In this document: in pieces, positions 12,305 to 19,070 of the stretch
Numbering within the stretch: the first letter of the stretch is position 1
How the letters are laid out: the number at the start of each line of letters is the position of its first letter
NCBI RefSeq assembly: GCF_000484535.1
Contig: NC_022600.1
Span: 1,488,001-1,552,000 of the forward strand
Length of the DNA: 64,000 bases
Reading direction: 5' to 3'
From: Gloeobacter kilaueensis JS1
GTDB lineage: Bacteria > Cyanobacteriota > Cyanobacteriia > Gloeobacterales > Gloeobacteraceae
Made by a program: the position numbers and the translations under genes
The notes under the pieces: model-generated
Seen by the model: the letters and a program-made list of their open reading frames with translations, nothing else
Databases searched by the model: none
Told to the model about the DNA's origin: nothing

Positions 12305-12859
12305 CTAGCGAAGCGTCACCACGATCGAACGCTGCAGCGCGCTGCTAGTTTGTTGCAGCCAGCTTTGCTGGGCACCGCGCAGTTGCCTGCCATAAAAATA
12401 CGGACGGCTGGGGCCGGCAGCAAGGCCCACCAGCGCGTTCGTCGTCGTGCCTGTCACTTCGATGCGGTTGGTGCCGGGCCGCAACTGGCTATCGAGGGGC
12501 AGAATCAACCGGGACGTGCTCAAATTTGCAAGCAACCGGCCATTGAGAAAGATCTGGCCCCGCAACGAGCGCCCGGACGGTGCCTGAAGAACCAGGTAAT
12601 AGTTGGAGGCGGACAGATCGCCTCGATCGATGTCGATTGTGCTCAGATCGGTGCCGCTGTTGTCCTGATACTGGTAGCTGCGCTGGGTCGCGGTGCTCGT
12701 AGAACGCGAGTCGCCACCCACAGTGACGCTGCTGGTATTCGTCTGCACCTGCACATCCCCGTCTGGACTCACCTGGACTGCCACCTGGGCACCGGCCACG
12801 GAGGCGCTCACCAGCCAGCTGGTGGTGAGCGCAGTGCCTATCCATCGGTTGAAGCGCAT
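12305..12859 (-). CDS. Secreted protein of unknown function
   Basis: A 184-residue protein with a Sec signal peptide (basic start MRFNRW, hydrophobic core, AGA-QV cleavage near residue 24). The mature part begins with Val/Gln/Ser/Thr-rich beta-prone sequence. It continues with a domain containing GQIFLNGRLLANL and LRPGTNRIEVTGTT, which resembles a small beta-sandwich of the kind used in adhesion or carbohydrate binding. It is the last gene of a run of four secreted proteins on this strand (14088 down to 12305) and ends just before tRNA-Ser. It lacks a clear copy of the 13-residue Q motif of its neighbours. Confidence 0.75.
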   Translation of the reverse strand: MRFNRWIGTALTTSWLVSASVAGAQVAVQVSPDGDVQVQTNTSSVTVGGDSRSTSTATQRSYQYQDNSGTDLSTIDIDRGDLSASNYYLVLQAPSGRSLRGQIFLNGRLLANLSTSRLILPLDSQLRPGTNRIEVTGTTTNALVGLAAGPSRPYFYGRQLRGAQQSWLQQTSSALQRSIVVTLR

Positions 12860-12877
12860 AACTTCACCTCAAAAAAA

Positions 12878-13291
12878 CTACCACCGTCCCTGGGGCCAGC
12901 CACGGTTGTCGCGGCGGTCCTCGCGCCGGTCCTGACGCACATCGCGCCGATCTTGACGCGCATCGCGCCAGTCTTGAATCCGGTCGCGCCGCTCACCGGG
13001 GTTGAAGTTCGGATTGTTGCCAATCGGACGATTGACGTAGGTGGTGCGCACCGAACCATGAAAGTCGTCCGGCACGTAGACATTCACCGCCTGGGACTGC
13101 TGGTTGGACTGGTTGAGGACGCCGGTCTGGCTGGTATTGCCGTAGCCGCCGCCGGCGTACTGGCCCTGGGAACCGTTGTTGATCGCGGTCTGATTTTGAA
13201 AGACCGGAATGACGATCCGATCGGCGTAGGCGGCTGGGGCCAGACTGAGTGCGCCGCCGGTGAGAATGGCTGCAAAGAGGGCTCTGGACAT
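12878..13291 (-). CDS. Secreted Q/N-rich protein with basic Arg/Asp tail
   Basis: The start is ATG 13291 (MSRALFAAIL) with AGGAG about 8 nt upstream; the longer frame to 13348 runs through a hairpin and is unlikely. It has a signal peptide of about 23 residues (APAAYA-D). The mature N-terminal part is Gly/Asn/Gln-rich and holds one copy of a Q-spaced motif, QTGVLNQSNQQSQ, shared with the next two upstream genes. The C terminus is a string of RRD-type repeats (DWRDARQDRRDVRQDRRED). Charged tails like this often bind surface polymers. Function is unknown; co-localisation suggests a shared extracellular structure. Confidence 0.75.
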   Translation of the reverse strand: MSRALFAAILTGGALSLAPAAYADRIVIPVFQNQTAINNGSQGQYAGGGYGNTSQTGVLNQSNQQSQAVNVYVPDDFHGSVRTTYVNRPIGNNPNFNPGERRDRIQDWRDARQDRRDVRQDRREDRRDNRGWPQGRW

Positions 13292-13314
13292 GGCTGAACT
13301 CCTGAAAGTGGAGC

Positions 13315-13350
13315 GGGTGCCGGGCTGCCGGGTCTGGCAGCCCGGCACCC
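13315..13350 (-). promoter_or_regulatory. Perfect 15-bp-arm hairpin between two secreted-protein genes
   Basis: The arms gggtgccgggctgcc and ggcagcccggcaccc are exact reverse complements around a 6-base loop. It lies between the stop of the 13385-13729 gene and the RBS of the 12878-13291 gene. No T-tract follows on the minus strand, so an mRNA processing or stabilising element, or an attenuator, is as likely as a terminator. Confidence 0.7.
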
Positions 13351-13384
13351 ACTTTAGAGGGAAAACAGGACAGAACTCAGGTGA

Positions 13385-13729
13385 CTAATAGCGGGGGCGT
13401 CCAATGTCCGGCAGGCCAAGCTGGATCTGCTGGGCGTTCTGGACGCCGATGCCGGTCTGCACCGCCGGGCTAACCCGGATGTCGTCCCGGCCAGGGTAGC
13501 TGTAGCTGCGCTCAGGGCGGCTGGGCCGACCGATGTACTGAAATTGCGGCTGCTGCTGGACGATCGTGCCGGCCTGGTTGCGCACGCCGAAGCCCAACTG
13601 GATCTGCTGGGCGTTCTGGACGCCGATGCCGGTCTGCACCGCCGGGCTGACATCGATCGTGCCGGCCTGAGCGACAGATGCCAGCAGGCCCACCAGGGCC
13701 ATTGCGCTAAATACGGGCAGCGTTTTCAT
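13385..13729 (-). CDS. Secreted Q-rich repeat protein
   Basis: A 114-residue protein with a clear signal peptide (MKTLPVFSAMALVGLLASVAQA-G). The mature protein holds two identical copies of SPAVQTGIGVQNAQQIQLG, encoded by two exact 51-bp direct repeats 177 bp apart, separated by a Tyr/Arg/Pro-rich linker (QYIGRPSRPERSYSY). The Q-spaced pattern (Q-T-G-x3-Q-x3-Q-x-Q) resembles, without matching, curlin-type amyloid repeats. A GGAG site precedes the ATG. It is the second gene of a four-gene minus-strand run. No CsgG/CsgE homologue is present in the window, so 'curli-like' is a structural analogy only. Confidence 0.78.
   Translation of the reverse strand: MKTLPVFSAMALVGLLASVAQAGTIDVSPAVQTGIGVQNAQQIQLGFGVRNQAGTIVQQQPQFQYIGRPSRPERSYSYPGRDDIRVSPAVQTGIGVQNAQQIQLGLPDIGRPRY
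13421..13471. repeat. 51-bp exact direct repeat, copy 1
   Basis: It begins ctggatctgctgggcg and is identical over 51 bp to 13598-13648. It lies in frame inside the Q-rich gene at 13385-13729 and encodes the second copy of the repeated peptide. Identity at all codon positions suggests recent duplication or ongoing gene conversion. Confidence 0.95.
13598..13648. repeat. 51-bp exact direct repeat, copy 2
   Basis: Identical to 13421-13471 over 51 bp. It encodes the first copy of the repeated Q-rich peptide, just after the signal peptide. The period is 177 bp (59 codons). Confidence 0.95.
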
Positions 13730-13746
13730 GGCAGTGTGCTCCGCAA

Positions 13747-14088
13747 TTAGTAACGGAAGCCGCCGCTGAACTGGCGCTGGCGCAGGTTGCGCAGATCGAC
13801 CAGGCTCTGGTTGACCCGGCCATAGCCTTCCTGGGCCTGCTGGACCGACTGCACACCGGCAGCCGTCTGCTGGATGTTCTCACCGTAGAAGCTGGGGCGG
13901 GCGCGCTGGAACTGGCCCATGTTCTGGACACTGATGCCGCTCTGGTAGCCACGGCCCTGCAGGTACTGCGACTGCGCACCTTCCTGGATACCGACGGCGG
14001 TTTGGGTGACATCGGCCATCGCCGCAGCGGCGGTAAGCGTGCTCAAAGCGAGGGCCAGACCAAAAGCGCGATAAACTTTCGTACTCAT
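13747..14088 (-). CDS. Secreted Q-rich repeat protein
   Basis: The start is ATG 14088 (MSTKVYRAFGLAL) with AGGAGA about 9 nt upstream, in preference to 14121. After a signal peptide (ending AAAAMA-D) there are three diverged copies of a 13-residue Q-spaced motif: QTAVGIQEGAQSQ, QSGISVQNMGQFQ and QTAAGVQSVQQAQ. A short Arg/Gln-rich tail follows (NLRQRQFSGGFRY). The same spacing recurs in the next two genes downstream. It is the first gene of the run, so the promoter should lie at 14090-14250. Function is unknown; an extracellular fibre or surface-matrix protein is the best guess. Confidence 0.78.
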   Translation of the reverse strand: MSTKVYRAFGLALALSTLTAAAAMADVTQTAVGIQEGAQSQYLQGRGYQSGISVQNMGQFQRARPSFYGENIQQTAAGVQSVQQAQEGYGRVNQSLVDLRNLRQRQFSGGFRY

Positions 14089-14271: not shown

Positions 14272-14303
14272 TAAGAAAACCGGCGAGGGAAGCCCCCGCC
14301 GGC
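14272..14303 (-). terminator. Rho-independent terminator after the secreted phosphodiesterase
   Basis: On the minus strand a GC hairpin (CCGGCGGGGG / CCCTCGCCGG with one mismatch, short loop) is followed by TTTTCTTAT. It sits about 50 bp after the phosphodiesterase stop at 14351, so it ends that transcript before the Q-repeat run. Confidence 0.8.
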
Positions 14304-14350
14304 TGTGTCACCGCTTGTGGGTCTCGAATTTGAGACCGATTGCAAAACTC

Positions 14351-16453
14351 CTATTTCAAAATTCCTTGAAGGGCCCGGCCATCGACGGTGGCCGCCGGAG
14401 CAACCCCCAATAGCTTCAAGATCGTGGGTGCCACATCGATGTTGCGCGTCAGCGGCAGCTGGGCCTTGCGGATATTTGGGCCGGCGGCAAAGAAGATGGC
14501 GCTCATCTCCGGCAGCTTGGAGTCGTAGCCGTGGGCACCGTAGAAGTTGGGCTGGGAGAGGACCGGCGTGGTGGAGGCCACATCTCCCTTGCGCTGGACG
14601 ACCGGCGACTGGGTGCCGTCGAAGTTGTAGCCCAGGTTGAGGATGGCAAAGACATCGCCTGTGTCCTGGCCGATGATTTGATTGGTGGCAAAACCAACTG
14701 GAACGTTCGCAGGGGTGGGCCGGGGGATGACGGTGCGGAAGAGTTTGCCGTTCGGCAGTGAATAGTTAAAAGTCGGGTTCGGATCGCCTGCTGCGGAGAG
14801 CGCCTGGAAAATTTGTTTCTGCAGCGCCGGGTAGTCGCTCGGGCTCACCGTGCCGTCCGCCTCCCTGCCCTGCAATTTGATGTAGACGTTGACGTCGGGG
14901 CCGGTGGTCACCGCCCGCACCTTGGTCGTGTCGATGCCGACGGAAGTGAGCAGGTTGTTGATGTTCACCGCCGTATGAAAGGGGGCCATGCCGTGGTCGG
15001 AGACGACGAAAACGTTGCTCCTGGGAGTACCGTCGCTGTTCTGGCCGACCGCAGCGATGATCTGCTGAACGGCGCTGTTGGCGGCTGTATACGAATTCTG
15101 GCGGTAGGTAGCGTAGCGCGACACCTTGGCTGGATCCTGGCCGGTGCCGATCGTGTTGGGGTCTTTGAAGTTGGTCGCCTGGCGCGGGTCGGTGAGGGTG
15201 AACTGGTGGCCGGAGCCGTCCGGCTGCTCGATGTAGACCATCACCAGGTCGGCGTCCGGGTTCTGGGAGATGGCGCGCAGGGCGATATTGGTCTGGTACT
15301 GCACGAAGCTGCTCACCTGATCTTCGTACATGCCCTCCAGTTCGGTGTCCGGAAAGCTATCGAAGCCGGAGCTGATGCGCTCGGGAATGCGAAAGTCCGG
15401 CTGGTTGCCCCAGAAGCCGACGTTGTTGTTGATGTCATCGACGCTGGCAAGGACCGGCGTGTTACGGGGAATGTAGTTGACCGAGTAGCGCGCTATGCGC
15501 ACCGTCGAGAGATCCGGAGCAAGAAAGCTTGCGTAGTAGGCAGATCCAGCTTTGTTGCTGTTGCCCTCGAAGTAAAAGCGCCGGGAGTGGCCGTCGGCGC
15601 GCACGTAGGCGGGGCCGGTGGAAGGCAGGGTGAAAGGCCCCGGCTGCACGCCCAGGTTCGCGTCGTAGAACACCAGCGTGTCGTAGTTGGTCACTCCGTC
15701 GTTGGTACTGTCGATCGCTGCCAGGTTGATCGTGTAGTTGGTGCCGCTGACATTAATCGTCTCAAGGGCCGTCGCCTTGGCCTTGACGGGGCTGTAGGAG
15801 GGATAACCGGCGGCCACCAGCTGGCTTGTGAGGGTGTCGCCGGCATTGGTGAAATCGACGGCCCCCAGAGCAAAGCCCTGGGCACCGACGCCGCCGAAGG
15901 TGCCGAAGGGCACCGTGTAATCGACCGTCCGCAGCGAACTGGGCTGCAGGAGGTTGCCGCTGGTCGGATCTTTGACATCGACGCCGTCGCCCCCCGGCCA
16001 GGTGGCGGTCACGACTTTTTTACCGGCGGCGCGCAGCGTCACCCAGATCGGGGTGGCAGTGGGTTCGGGACTCACCGCCGGACCAGAAATCGCGTAGCCG
16101 CCGATCGGCGCGCCGAAGCCGCTGATGTTGGCGCTGAAGTTGCTTGCCACCAGATGAAAGGTGTTGGCGTTGATGTCGTTGTGGGCCGCCCGCGAGCCGG
16201 TGGCAATCGCGATGTGTCCGGGAGCGGTGATCGACGGGGTGATCGTCAGATTCTGGATGGAACTGGTCCCCAACCGCTGCAAAAGCCCCAGACCGCTGCT
16301 GGTGTCAAAGACACCGGATTGGATGTAGCCGGCAAAAGTAGTCGGATTGGCGCTATCAAGCGAGATAAGTACAACTTTGGGCTGGGCCCAAACAGAAGGG
16401 ATGGCTACCAGCGACGCAAGGGCCGCAACGGCCACAGACGGCAGATGTTTCAT
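14351..16453 (-). CDS. Secreted type I phosphodiesterase / alkaline-phosphatase-superfamily hydrolase
   Basis: A 700-residue protein with a signal peptide (VAVAALASLVAIPSVWA-Q). The fold is of the nucleotide pyrophosphatase/phosphodiesterase class: metal-site strand VVLISLDSA near residue 30, nucleophile region ITAPGHIAIATGS (about 73-85), a later QPDGSGHQFT metal site and VVSDHGMAPFH near residue 480. Such enzymes release phosphate or nucleotides from phosphodiesters outside the cytoplasm, often under phosphate limitation. The protein is longer than bacterial Npp enzymes of about 450 residues because of inserts between residues 170 and 330. It is monocistronic with its own terminator. The exact substrate is unknown. 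Confidence 0.88.
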   Translation of the reverse strand: MKHLPSVAVAALASLVAIPSVWAQPKVVLISLDSANPTTFAGYIQSGVFDTSSGLGLLQRLGTSSIQNLTITPSITAPGHIAIATGSRAAHNDINANTFHLVASNFSANISGFGAPIGGYAISGPAVSPEPTATPIWVTLRAAGKKVVTATWPGGDGVDVKDPTSGNLLQPSSLRTVDYTVPFGTFGGVGAQGFALGAVDFTNAGDTLTSQLVAAGYPSYSPVKAKATALETINVSGTNYTINLAAIDSTNDGVTNYDTLVFYDANLGVQPGPFTLPSTGPAYVRADGHSRRFYFEGNSNKAGSAYYASFLAPDLSTVRIARYSVNYIPRNTPVLASVDDINNNVGFWGNQPDFRIPERISSGFDSFPDTELEGMYEDQVSSFVQYQTNIALRAISQNPDADLVMVYIEQPDGSGHQFTLTDPRQATNFKDPNTIGTGQDPAKVSRYATYRQNSYTAANSAVQQIIAAVGQNSDGTPRSNVFVVSDHGMAPFHTAVNINNLLTSVGIDTTKVRAVTTGPDVNVYIKLQGREADGTVSPSDYPALQKQIFQALSAAGDPNPTFNYSLPNGKLFRTVIPRPTPANVPVGFATNQIIGQDTGDVFAILNLGYNFDGTQSPVVQRKGDVASTTPVLSQPNFYGAHGYDSKLPEMSAIFFAAGPNIRKAQLPLTRNIDVAPTILKLLGVAPAATVDGRALQGILK

Positions 16454-16523: not shown

Positions 16524-17189
16524 TCAATTTGTTGGTCGGCTGGTCGAGACGAGGCCCTGCTCAATGGCGTAGCGCACCAGCTCGGTGCGGCTGCTGGTGC
16601 CGGTTTTAACGAGCAGGCGGCTTACGTACTTCTCGACGTTGCGGGTGCTGCGCTCCAGGCGGGCGGCAATCTCTTTGTTCATCAGACCCTCGCAAACCAG
16701 TTGCAGAATCTGCTGCTCGCGGGGCGTCAAGTCCAGTTCGACGCTGCTCTGGCGGGGAAGCGGGGCGGGCCGCTGCTGCAGTTCGGCCAACAGCCCGACG
16801 ATCTCAGACTGTATCTGGCGCGAGCGCTCCAGCAGATTGTGGATGATCGCCACCAGCTCCTCGGGATCGCCCGGTTTGGCCATGTAGGCGTCGCAGCCGT
16901 GGCGGTAGCCCTGGATCCGGTCAGCAGTCTGGCCTTTGGCCGTTAAAAAGATCACCGGTGTCTGGCGAAAGCGGGGCAGGGCGCGCAATTTTTGCAAGAA
17001 GCGGTAGCCATCGACCTGGGGCATCATGATGTCGGTGATCACCAGATCCGGCTGGTGCTTTTTGAGCAATTCCTCCCCTTCGATCGCGTTGCGGGCGACA
17101 GTGACGCTAAAGCCGGCGTCTTCGAGGTACGCCTGGAGGGCAAGGCGGATGCCCGGATCGTCATCGACCAGCAGCAGATGGGCAGACAT
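16524..17189 (-). CDS. NarL/LuxR-type response regulator
   Basis: A 221-residue two-domain regulator. The receiver domain (1-120) has the acidic pair DDDPG and phospho-acceptor Asp in LVITDIMMPQVDGY. The C terminus has a LuxR HTH (LTPREQQILQLVCEGLMNKEIAARLERSTRNVEKYVSRLL). The kinase gene 17193-17831 lies 3 bp upstream and a second kinase precedes that, so the three form one operon and probably one signalling pathway. The signal is unknown. Confidence 0.93.
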   Translation of the reverse strand: MSAHLLLVDDDPGIRLALQAYLEDAGFSVTVARNAIEGEELLKKHQPDLVITDIMMPQVDGYRFLQKLRALPRFRQTPVIFLTAKGQTADRIQGYRHGCDAYMAKPGDPEELVAIIHNLLERSRQIQSEIVGLLAELQQRPAPLPRQSSVELDLTPREQQILQLVCEGLMNKEIAARLERSTRNVEKYVSRLLVKTGTSSRTELVRYAIEQGLVSTSRPTN

Positions 17190-17192
17190 AGG

Positions 17193-17831
17193 TCAAGATT
17201 CCTCGGCGGCGGGTAGGGTGACACGAAAATAACTGCCGCGACCGGCAGCCGGGTAGACGTTGATCGCACCGTTCATCCGGCTTACGAGATCGCGGGCGAC
17301 AGCCAGCCCCAGCCCCTGGCCATTGAGCACACCCGTTCTGGTACCCCGGTAATACGGCTCAAAGATGTGCTCAACTTCGCCGGGGGCGATGCCCTCACCG
17401 GTGTCGGCCACCTCGATTGTCCAGCGCTCCGCCTCGGGGCGGACCCGAATTGTCACTGTGCCGCCGGTGGGCGTGTACTTGAAGGCGTTGTCGAGCAGGT
17501 TCATCAGCACCTCCCGCAGGGCGCTCGGGCTGGCAAGCACGGTGGCTTCGATTTGCCCGTGCACCTCAAAGGCAATCTGGCGCTCCTGGGCGATGGGCTG
17601 GGTCGTCCGGGCAATTTCTTGCAACAGCGGCGCGAGGGGCACCGGCTCGATCGTCAGGACACTGAGGGGATCGTCGAGCAAACTGTCCAGGCGGCGGCAT
17701 TCTGCCACGATCGCATCGAGCAGCGCCCGGTTGGGATCGTCCGCCGCCAGGCGCTTTTTGACGAGGCTCGCCAGGGTGCGGATCGCCATCACCGGATTGC
17801 GCAACTGGTGGGCAAGCTGATCAAAATCCAC
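17193..17831 (-). CDS. Sensor-less histidine kinase
   Basis: A 212-residue kinase core only. A short HisKA with QLAHQLRNPVMAIRTL (phospho-acceptor His9) is followed by a complete HATPase: N-box LMNLLDNAFKYTP, G1 box VADTGEGIAPGE, and GQGLGLAVA. There is no sensory domain or membrane segment. The kinase gene 17835-19070 immediately upstream carries a sensory N terminus but a degraded ATPase, so the two products may work as a pair. Starts are adjacent to the previous stop (about 3 bp), indicating coupling. The downstream NarL regulator is the expected partner. Confidence 0.9.
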   Translation of the reverse strand: MDFDQLAHQLRNPVMAIRTLASLVKKRLAADDPNRALLDAIVAECRRLDSLLDDPLSVLTIEPVPLAPLLQEIARTTQPIAQERQIAFEVHGQIEATVLASPSALREVLMNLLDNAFKYTPTGGTVTIRVRPEAERWTIEVADTGEGIAPGEVEHIFEPYYRGTRTGVLNGQGLGLAVARDLVSRMNGAINVYPAAGRGSYFRVTLPAAEES

Positions 17832-17834
17832 GGC

Positions 17835-19070
17835 TCAGCTTTGAATCGGAAGATACAGTGTCAGCGTACTGCTTTCGCCGTCCGGGTGCAGGCGCAGCGT
17901 GAGCTTGCCGCCCATCGCCGCCACGAGCCCCTGGGCCGCAGGGAGCTTGAGGGTGACCGCCCCGGCCTGGGAATCGACCCGATAGGGCGCACCGCTGGCC
18001 GGTTCCTCGACGCTGCCGCCGGTGATGCCGATGCGCAGCCGCAGCCACAGACCCGCCCGCTCGGCCTTGAGCTGGATGTGGCTGCCAAAAGGCAGGCTGC
18101 GCACCAGCCGGTCTACCAGTCCGCCCAATACCCGCTCCAAAAGCACCTGGTCGGCCTGAACTTTGGGCAATTCGGTGGGCGGATTATCGACTTCGAGGGC
18201 CAGACCGCGCGAGTCGGCCTCCTCGCGCCAGCGCTCCAGATAACTCAATAGCAGCTGGTCCATCGCGACGGCCTGGGGTCTGAGGGACAGCTCGCCCTGC
18301 TCGTGGTCCATCGCCAGCGCCAACAGCTCGAAGCGCTCGATCTGCAGGGCGCACTCGCGGTCGATCGTCTCCAGGTACTGCCGGGTCTGGCCAGAAAGCT
18401 CGTTGCGCCGCAAGATCAGCCGCGTCAGCGTCCGGATCGTCGTCAGCGGCGTGCGCACCTCGTGGGAGAGCAACTCCAGAAAATCAAGCTCAGTGCCGTC
18501 GATCGATTCTTGAGCGCGCGCCCCTTCGATGAGCAGGCGGCGGCTGAAGCGCGCGAGGAGCCTGGCACTGGCGGCAGGCAGCTTCTCCAGTAGCCCGTCA
18601 AAATCACCCAGCAAATCGGGCCGGGTGATCACCAGGCGCTGGCGCAGCACGGCACTGGCCCGCAGAACCACCAGCGGCTCAAAAGAAAATTGCAGCGACG
18701 GGCTGCGGTGGCAGAGCACCAGGCAAAAGTCGGAGGCCAGGGCGATGACAAAATTTTCTTCGACCAGCGGATCGCCCGCGCCCAGGGCAATGGCCACCGC
18801 CCCGGCAAGCTTCGCTTCGGCGCTTTGAAACTGCCAGAGGCGCGGCGCGAGCGGACAGGCCGCAACCAGCTCCTGCAGCGCCAGTTTGCCCCCGACAAAA
18901 AGGGTTGCCCGGCCAGGATACTCACCTAAAAAACCAGCGAGCGCCGCCAGCGCCATCGTCCAGGTGCGGCGGCCAGCTGCCCCCAGTTGCTCGGCGAAGG
19001 GCGGCCCCGCCGCCAGCGCCTGGCTGAGCGAGCGCAATCTCGGAGCAAGTCCAAGGGTTTCCATCGCCAA
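17835..19070 (-). CDS. Sensor histidine kinase with degenerate ATPase domain
   Basis: A 411-residue soluble protein. The first ~200 residues form a sensory region that may be DICT- or GAF-like (GDPLVEENFVIALASDFCLVLCHR). A good HisKA follows (LLSHEVRTPLTTIRTLTRL, His near residue 209). The C-terminal ATPase-like domain lacks a recognisable N-box Asn and the DxGxG box: where these should be, the sequence reads LLERVLGGLVDRLVRSLP and LRLRIGITGGSVEE. It probably cannot bind ATP normally and may be phosphorylated in trans by the adjacent kinase. First gene of a three-gene operon with 17193-17831 and the NarL regulator. Confidence 0.85.
   Translation of the reverse strand: MAMETLGLAPRLRSLSQALAAGPPFAEQLGAAGRRTWTMALAALAGFLGEYPGRATLFVGGKLALQELVAACPLAPRLWQFQSAEAKLAGAVAIALGAGDPLVEENFVIALASDFCLVLCHRSPSLQFSFEPLVVLRASAVLRQRLVITRPDLLGDFDGLLEKLPAASARLLARFSRRLLIEGARAQESIDGTELDFLELLSHEVRTPLTTIRTLTRLILRRNELSGQTRQYLETIDRECALQIERFELLALAMDHEQGELSLRPQAVAMDQLLLSYLERWREEADSRGLALEVDNPPTELPKVQADQVLLERVLGGLVDRLVRSLPFGSHIQLKAERAGLWLRLRIGITGGSVEEPASGAPYRVDSQAGAVTLKLPAAQGLVAAMGGKLTLRLHPDGESSTLTLYLPIQS

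What the first reader, a model, noticed from the sequence alone, without database searches (positions are those of the whole stretch)
12305..14088. Cluster of small secreted proteins sharing a 13-residue Q-spaced motif
Three adjacent exported proteins (13747-14088, 13385-13729, 12878-13291) carry six copies in total of Q-[TS]-[GA]-x3-Q-x3-Q-x-Q or close variants: QTAVGIQEGAQSQ, QSGISVQNMGQFQ, QTAAGVQSVQQAQ, two of QTGIGVQNAQQIQ, and QTGVLNQSNQQSQ. A fourth secreted protein follows. The regular Gln spacing resembles, but does not match, curlin amyloid repeats, and no curli secretion genes are in the window. This could be an undescribed extracellular fibre or matrix system.
Basis: partly seen in the sequence, partly recalled or inferred. 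Interest (0 to 1): 0.72.

Follow-up and report, generated by a model that had tools for sequence, protein, structure and literature searches.

The report
Cyanobacterial secreted glutamine-repeat matrix operon
Four neighbouring genes in a cave-biofilm cyanobacterium encode small exported proteins, three of them built from evenly spaced glutamine repeats; the set is conserved in the oldest cyanobacterial lineage, looks like a distant version of an unnamed gene cluster common in other cyanobacteria, and probably makes part of the cell's outer fibre or slime layer.

Summary
They form a compact unit with a fourth exported gene, D (12305-12859). The genome matches Gloeobacter kilaueensis JS1 by size. 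ABCD is conserved in order in five other Gloeobacterales and two remote cyanobacteria; Q residues are the most conserved positions. A, B and C are mutually related beyond composition. None has a Pfam or NCBIfam match; CsgG, CsgF and curlin repeats are absent from these genomes. D's C-terminal beta-sandwich occurs in 53 of 390 relatives' genomes, and in every assessable neighbourhood read, small secreted Q-repeat proteins lie beside it, mostly just upstream on the same strand. One such family is detectably related to A, and another fits the minimal curli repeat QxGxxN. Fibre formation, amyloid nature and the outer-membrane route are inferred, not shown.

The parts
13747..14088 (-). Gene A: 113 aa exported protein, four motif copies (three exact, one degenerate) spaced 20, 25 and 20 residues
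   Evidence: low-confidence model puts four strands on the four copies
13385..13729 (-). Gene B: 114 aa exported protein, three motif copies (two identical)
   Evidence: profile finds only 9 of 390 genomes
12878..13291 (-). Gene C: 137 aa exported protein, one exact and one degenerate copy, then a conserved VNVYVPDDFxG-like stretch and an Arg/Asp-rich tail
12305..12859 (-). Gene D: 184 aa exported protein; N-terminal VSVQV-x-G-DVQVQT strand motif, linker, C-terminal ~110 aa beta-sandwich
13292..13384 (-). B-C spacer with a strong hairpin (possible expression attenuator or mRNA stabiliser)
   Evidence: -49 kcal/mol, z -6.8; hairpins of unrelated sequence also predicted in the same spacer of 5 relatives, z -0.7 to -1.7 (individually not significant)
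14278..14304 (-). Terminator-like hairpin between the upstream phosphodiesterase gene and A
   Evidence: consensus match only

Best explanation
A-B-C-D is a co-transcribed set for a cell-surface or extracellular matrix structure. A, B and C are exported by Sec and then assemble through their Q-spaced strands into stacked beta-sheets (Gln ladders on one face, V/I at motif positions 3 and 5 on the other), i.e. beta-solenoid or functional-amyloid-like subunits. D, a beta-sandwich protein, is the non-repeat partner: an anchor, cap, chaperone or polysaccharide-binding component. The hairpin between B and C may let A and B be made in excess. It is the Gloeobacterales version of a wider cyanobacterial cluster (secreted Q-repeat proteins beside a D-type sandwich). 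Shown: motif, operon-like order, conservation, mutual relatedness of A/B/C, wider association with D. Inferred: co-transcription, strand stacking, polymerisation, crossing the outer membrane, and the role of each subunit.
For: Motif far above chance. Same order in G001-G005, A-B-C in G006 (contig ends after C), and in distant G062 and G027. Spacers A-B 17 and C-D 18 bases. A/B/C profiles without signal peptides: hhalign scores 43, 31 and 31 against column-shuffled maxima of 12-13. Q positions preferentially invariant. D-type sandwich in 53 of 390 genomes; Q-repeat secreted ORFs on the same strand within 4 kb, nearly always upstream, in 18 of 20 neighbourhoods; of the other two, one (L111) is rescued by profile hits at G192 and one (L112) lacks upstream sequence. 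In 17 of 26 genomes not used to build the A9 profile, the A9 hit lies within 3 kb of a D hit (hand count). A relates to A9: 25.3 against a shuffled maximum of 14.4, 0 of 100. D N-terminus relates to a separate small gene beside D elsewhere: 28.2 against 11.9. Organism comes from a cave-wall biofilm, cells often in mucilaginous sheaths (PMC3806779).
Against: No fibre, amyloid or localisation data. A model mean pLDDT is 42. No outer-membrane exporter is linked. The alternating-hydropathy test over all non-Q motif positions was negative. B and C do not reach A9 above the null individually.
Confidence: 0.55

Rival explanations
1. A-C are periplasmic or peptidoglycan-associated structural or stress proteins that never leave the cell; the Q-repeats bind wall or glycan rather than polymerise.
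For: Only Sec-type signals seen; no linked exporter; CsgG and CsgF absent; D resembles sugar-binding jelly rolls weakly.
Against: Gram-negative outer-membrane exporters are often unlinked; the repeat architecture with GxxN-like turns in the wider relatives resembles extracellular subunits.
Confidence: 0.25
2. True curli homologues that diverged beyond Pfam detection.
For: Cyanobacterial subfamily A8 has QxGxxN repeats and scores 23 against CsgA/B, shuffled maximum 19.4, 0 of 100; C contains QTGVLN.
Against: A, B, C against CsgA/B at or near null; Curlin_rpt not hit; CsgG and CsgF absent; hhalign probability of A8 with CsgA/B only 8%.
Confidence: 0.1
3. Low-complexity Q-rich proteins whose similarity is due only to composition and signal peptides.
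For: Q-rich, low-information sequences; hhalign E-values on such proteins are unreliable.
Against: Column shuffles keep composition and never reach the observed scores; positional conservation of Q; fixed gene neighbourhood.
Confidence: 0.05

Closest known systems
Curli (CsgA/CsgB, minimal repeat X6QXGX2NX10, PMC3521004)
   Same: Small Sec-exported repeat subunits with regularly spaced Gln and Gly/Asn, repeat period 20-25, adjacent paralogous subunit genes, a small curlin chaperone gene next door (csgC in E. coli; that it is a beta-sandwich is from memory).
   Different: Motif is Qx5Qx3QxQ, not QxGx2N; no CsgG/CsgF/curlin hit; no profile similarity of A-C to CsgA/B above null.
EbfG1-4 of Synechococcus elongatus PCC 7942 (PMC9981879)
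   Same: Four-gene operon of small secreted proteins in a cyanobacterium; EbfG1-3 form amyloid and the operon is required for biofilm.
   Different: EbfG carry double-glycine secretion motifs and depend on PteB/EbfE; A-D carry Sec-type signals. Sequence similarity was not computed here.
CccS/CccP chaperone-usher-like surface proteins of Synechocystis (PMC4390875)
   Same: Cyanobacterial surface structural protein plus a beta-sandwich partner.
   Different: SCPU and PapD domains; neither is hit here; an usher was found in only one of 9 genomes.
Unnamed cluster on Rippkaea orientalis PCC 8801 plasmid pP880101 (NC_011721.1)
   Same: Small exported proteins followed by a D-type domain and a Q/N-repeat protein; these genes are annotated hypothetical.
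   Different: D N-terminal motif is a separate gene; the repeat protein lies downstream and ends in a PEP-CTERM-like tail.

Membership tests
Curli (csg) system | Curlin repeat (PF07012) in subunits | tested here: not met
   No hit in A-C at E<=1; none over cut-off in 11 genomes, E. coli control positive
Curli (csg) system | CsgG outer-membrane exporter (PF03783) | tested here: not met
   0 of 11 genomes; controls positive
Curli (csg) system | CsgF (PF10614) | tested here: not met
   0 of 9 genomes; E. coli control positive
Curli (csg) system | CsgE | not tested
Curli (csg) system | Profile similarity of subunits to CsgA/B | tested here: not met
   A 9.7, B 14.2, C 9.1 against null maxima 11.9, 14.4, 12.4
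Curli (csg) system | Extracellular cross-beta fibres | not testable with these tools
   needs expression and dye/EM/diffraction
Chaperone-usher pilus | Usher (PF00577) | tested here: not met
   absent from own genome and 7 of 8 relatives
EbfG matrix proteins | Double-glycine leader | tested here: not met
   N-termini read directly are Sec-type; judged by eye
Cyanobacterial Q-repeat plus D-sandwich cluster (proposed here) | Exported Q-repeat genes directly upstream of a D-type sandwich gene, same strand | tested here: met
Cyanobacterial Q-repeat plus D-sandwich cluster (proposed here) | Repeat proteins homologous between Gloeobacter and other cyanobacteria | tested here: inconclusive
   A against A9 above 100 shuffles but hhalign probability 34%; B and C not above null

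The most novel reading that the evidence does not exclude
A previously unrecognised, phylum-wide cyanobacterial surface-fibre system, present in the earliest-branching lineage: Q-ladder beta-solenoid subunits with a dedicated beta-sandwich partner, evolved separately from curli and exported by an unknown route.
Probability: 0.3. Interest if true: 0.8.

Novelty: new variant of a known kind. Interest (0 to 1): 0.6.

Why it matters
Cyanobacterial mats and sheaths shaped early ecosystems, yet few of their matrix proteins are known. This gives a specific, unannotated gene set in the thylakoid-less Gloeobacterales and related sets across the phylum that can be tested by deletion and fibre assays, and it asks how curli-like subunits could be exported without CsgG.

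Tried and rejected
Pfam and NCBIfam scans of A-D and of the wider relatives: no credible hit. PDB sequence searches with A, B and D profiles: nothing. Fold search with D: best Z about 6, mixed (RSC subunit, MmpS5, GH2 sugar-binding domains, NAD kinase); read only as a generic beta-sandwich. AlphaFold of A: pLDDT 42, used only as a hint. Profile of C over 386 phylum genomes found only the window genome; that sample was drawn evenly and apparently left out the known carriers. Curli membership, chaperone-usher membership and composition artefact considered and rejected as above. C against the AQC family (the small exported gene before D elsewhere) was too weak to use: 14.7 against a null maximum of 14.3. 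Motif hydropathy alternation over all non-Q positions: negative. One plasmid query was mistyped at its first residues and is not used. Literature searches found no description of these families in the open-access library; most subscription papers are not held.

Full report
Where it is. The window lies in a complete single-contig genome of 4,724,791 bases. That size, and a window G+C of 60.4% beside a published 60.54% (PMC3806779), fit Gloeobacter kilaueensis JS1; the size match is from memory. JS1 was cultivated from a cave-wall biofilm and its cells are often in mucilaginous sheaths.

The observation. A (13747-14088), B (13385-13729) and C (12878-13291) are exported proteins on the minus strand with 6 strict and 7 relaxed motif copies; shuffled sequences give 0.004 and 0.16. 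A fourth exported protein, D (12305-12859), follows. Spacers are 17 (A-B), 93 (B-C) and 18 (C-D) bases. A terminator-like hairpin separates A from the upstream phosphodiesterase gene; a tRNA-like gene follows D (read from the sequence; not run through ARAGORN).

Conservation. Single-sequence and profile searches find A and B in all five other Gloeobacteraceae genomes held, in G006, and in two remote cyanobacteria, G062 and G027. Reading the regions shows the same order A-B-C-D in G001-G005, A-B-C in G006 where the contig ends, A-B-(C-like paralogue)-C-D in G062, and A-B-C-D plus a second partial set (LuxR-type regulator, Q protein, B-like, D-like, TolC-like) in G027. Upstream, a phosphodiesterase is shared with G001-G004, and a response regulator and two sensor-kinase-like ORFs with G001-G003. 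Gln positions are invariant far more often than others.

Relatedness. With signal peptides removed, A-B, A-C and B-C profile comparisons score 43, 31 and 31 against column-shuffled maxima of 13, 12 and 13 (12 shuffles each). They are therefore related beyond composition.

Wider system. A profile of D hits 53 of 390 genomes, mostly through its C-terminal ~110 residues. Twenty of these neighbourhoods were read: 18 carry one to five small exported Q-repeat proteins on the same strand within 4 kb, nearly always just upstream; in one of the other two (L111) a profile finds them (G192), the other (L112) lacks upstream sequence. A profile of one such family (A9: Qx3Qx5Gx2Nx3Qx3Q, twice per protein) finds 37 genomes; in 17 of 26 genomes not used as seeds the hit lies within 3 kb of a D hit (hand count). 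A is related to A9 (25.3 against a maximum of 14.4 in 100 shuffles), though hhalign's own probability is only 34%; B and C are not above null. The N-terminal motif of D (VSVQVGxDGDVQVQT) matches a small separate gene that sits beside D elsewhere (28.2 against 11.9), so D of Gloeobacter appears fused where others are split. On a Rippkaea orientalis PCC 8801 plasmid a named example has the corresponding genes annotated only as hypothetical.

Curli question. No Curlin_rpt, CsgG or CsgF in these genomes, with E. coli controls positive. A, B and C are not detectably related to CsgA/B. One non-Gloeobacter subfamily (A8) has Q-x-G-x-x-N repeats as in the minimal curli repeat (PMC3521004) and reaches 23 against 19.4 in 100 shuffles, a marginal signal. 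Common ancestry with curli is thus open for that subfamily and unsupported for the window's proteins.

Structure. AlphaFold of A has pLDDT 42, yet its four strands (3-19, 24-36, 48-64, 69-81) coincide with the four motif copies; I treat this as a hint. In the motif all four Gln are at even positions, so on one face of a beta strand, and V/I prefer positions 3 and 5; a hydropathy test over all other positions was negative. D's C-terminal domain is confident (blocks mostly above 90) and a beta-sandwich; fold matches are weak and mixed. The sequence LxGxIxxNG...PYLxxGxNxIxIxG recalls the sugar-binding domain of GH2 enzymes, from memory plus rows.

Expression. The B-C spacer of the window folds into a strong hairpin (z -6.8); spacers of five relatives also contain hairpins of unrelated sequence, individually not significant. 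If real, it could raise A and B over C and D.

Verdict. The proteins are a real, conserved and unannotated family set. The best reading is a secreted matrix or fibre system that works like functional-amyloid subunits, with D as partner. Fibre formation, outer-membrane crossing and the roles of each subunit remain to be tested.

Noticed in passing
16524-19070 (-): Two sensor-kinase-like ORFs and a REC-LuxR response regulator upstream of the phosphodiesterase, syntenic in three other Gloeobacter genomes; possible regulators of the operon (CsgD of curli is also LuxR-type, from memory).
   Followed up: partly
14351-16453 (-): Exported type I phosphodiesterase/nucleotide pyrophosphatase (PF01663) directly upstream of the operon, conserved there in G001-G004.
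   Followed up: partly
L035:2687-7835: Second partial set in G027 flanked by a LuxR-type regulator and a TolC-like outer-membrane protein gene, a candidate exporter.
   Followed up: no
L093:6516-7013, L095:5076-5579, L099:5225-5779, L107:4493-5005: Conserved exported protein downstream of D in several cyanobacteria: N/Q-rich start, then QPGRxxxH..RM and a coiled-coil-like C-terminus; possible anchor.
   Followed up: no
L114:1660-2736: Q/N-repeat protein of Rippkaea orientalis with a PEP-CTERM-like C-terminus beside the D-type gene.
   Followed up: no
L098:3224-4429: Three near-identical tandem copies of a Q-repeat gene upstream of D, as in subunit amplification.
   Followed up: no
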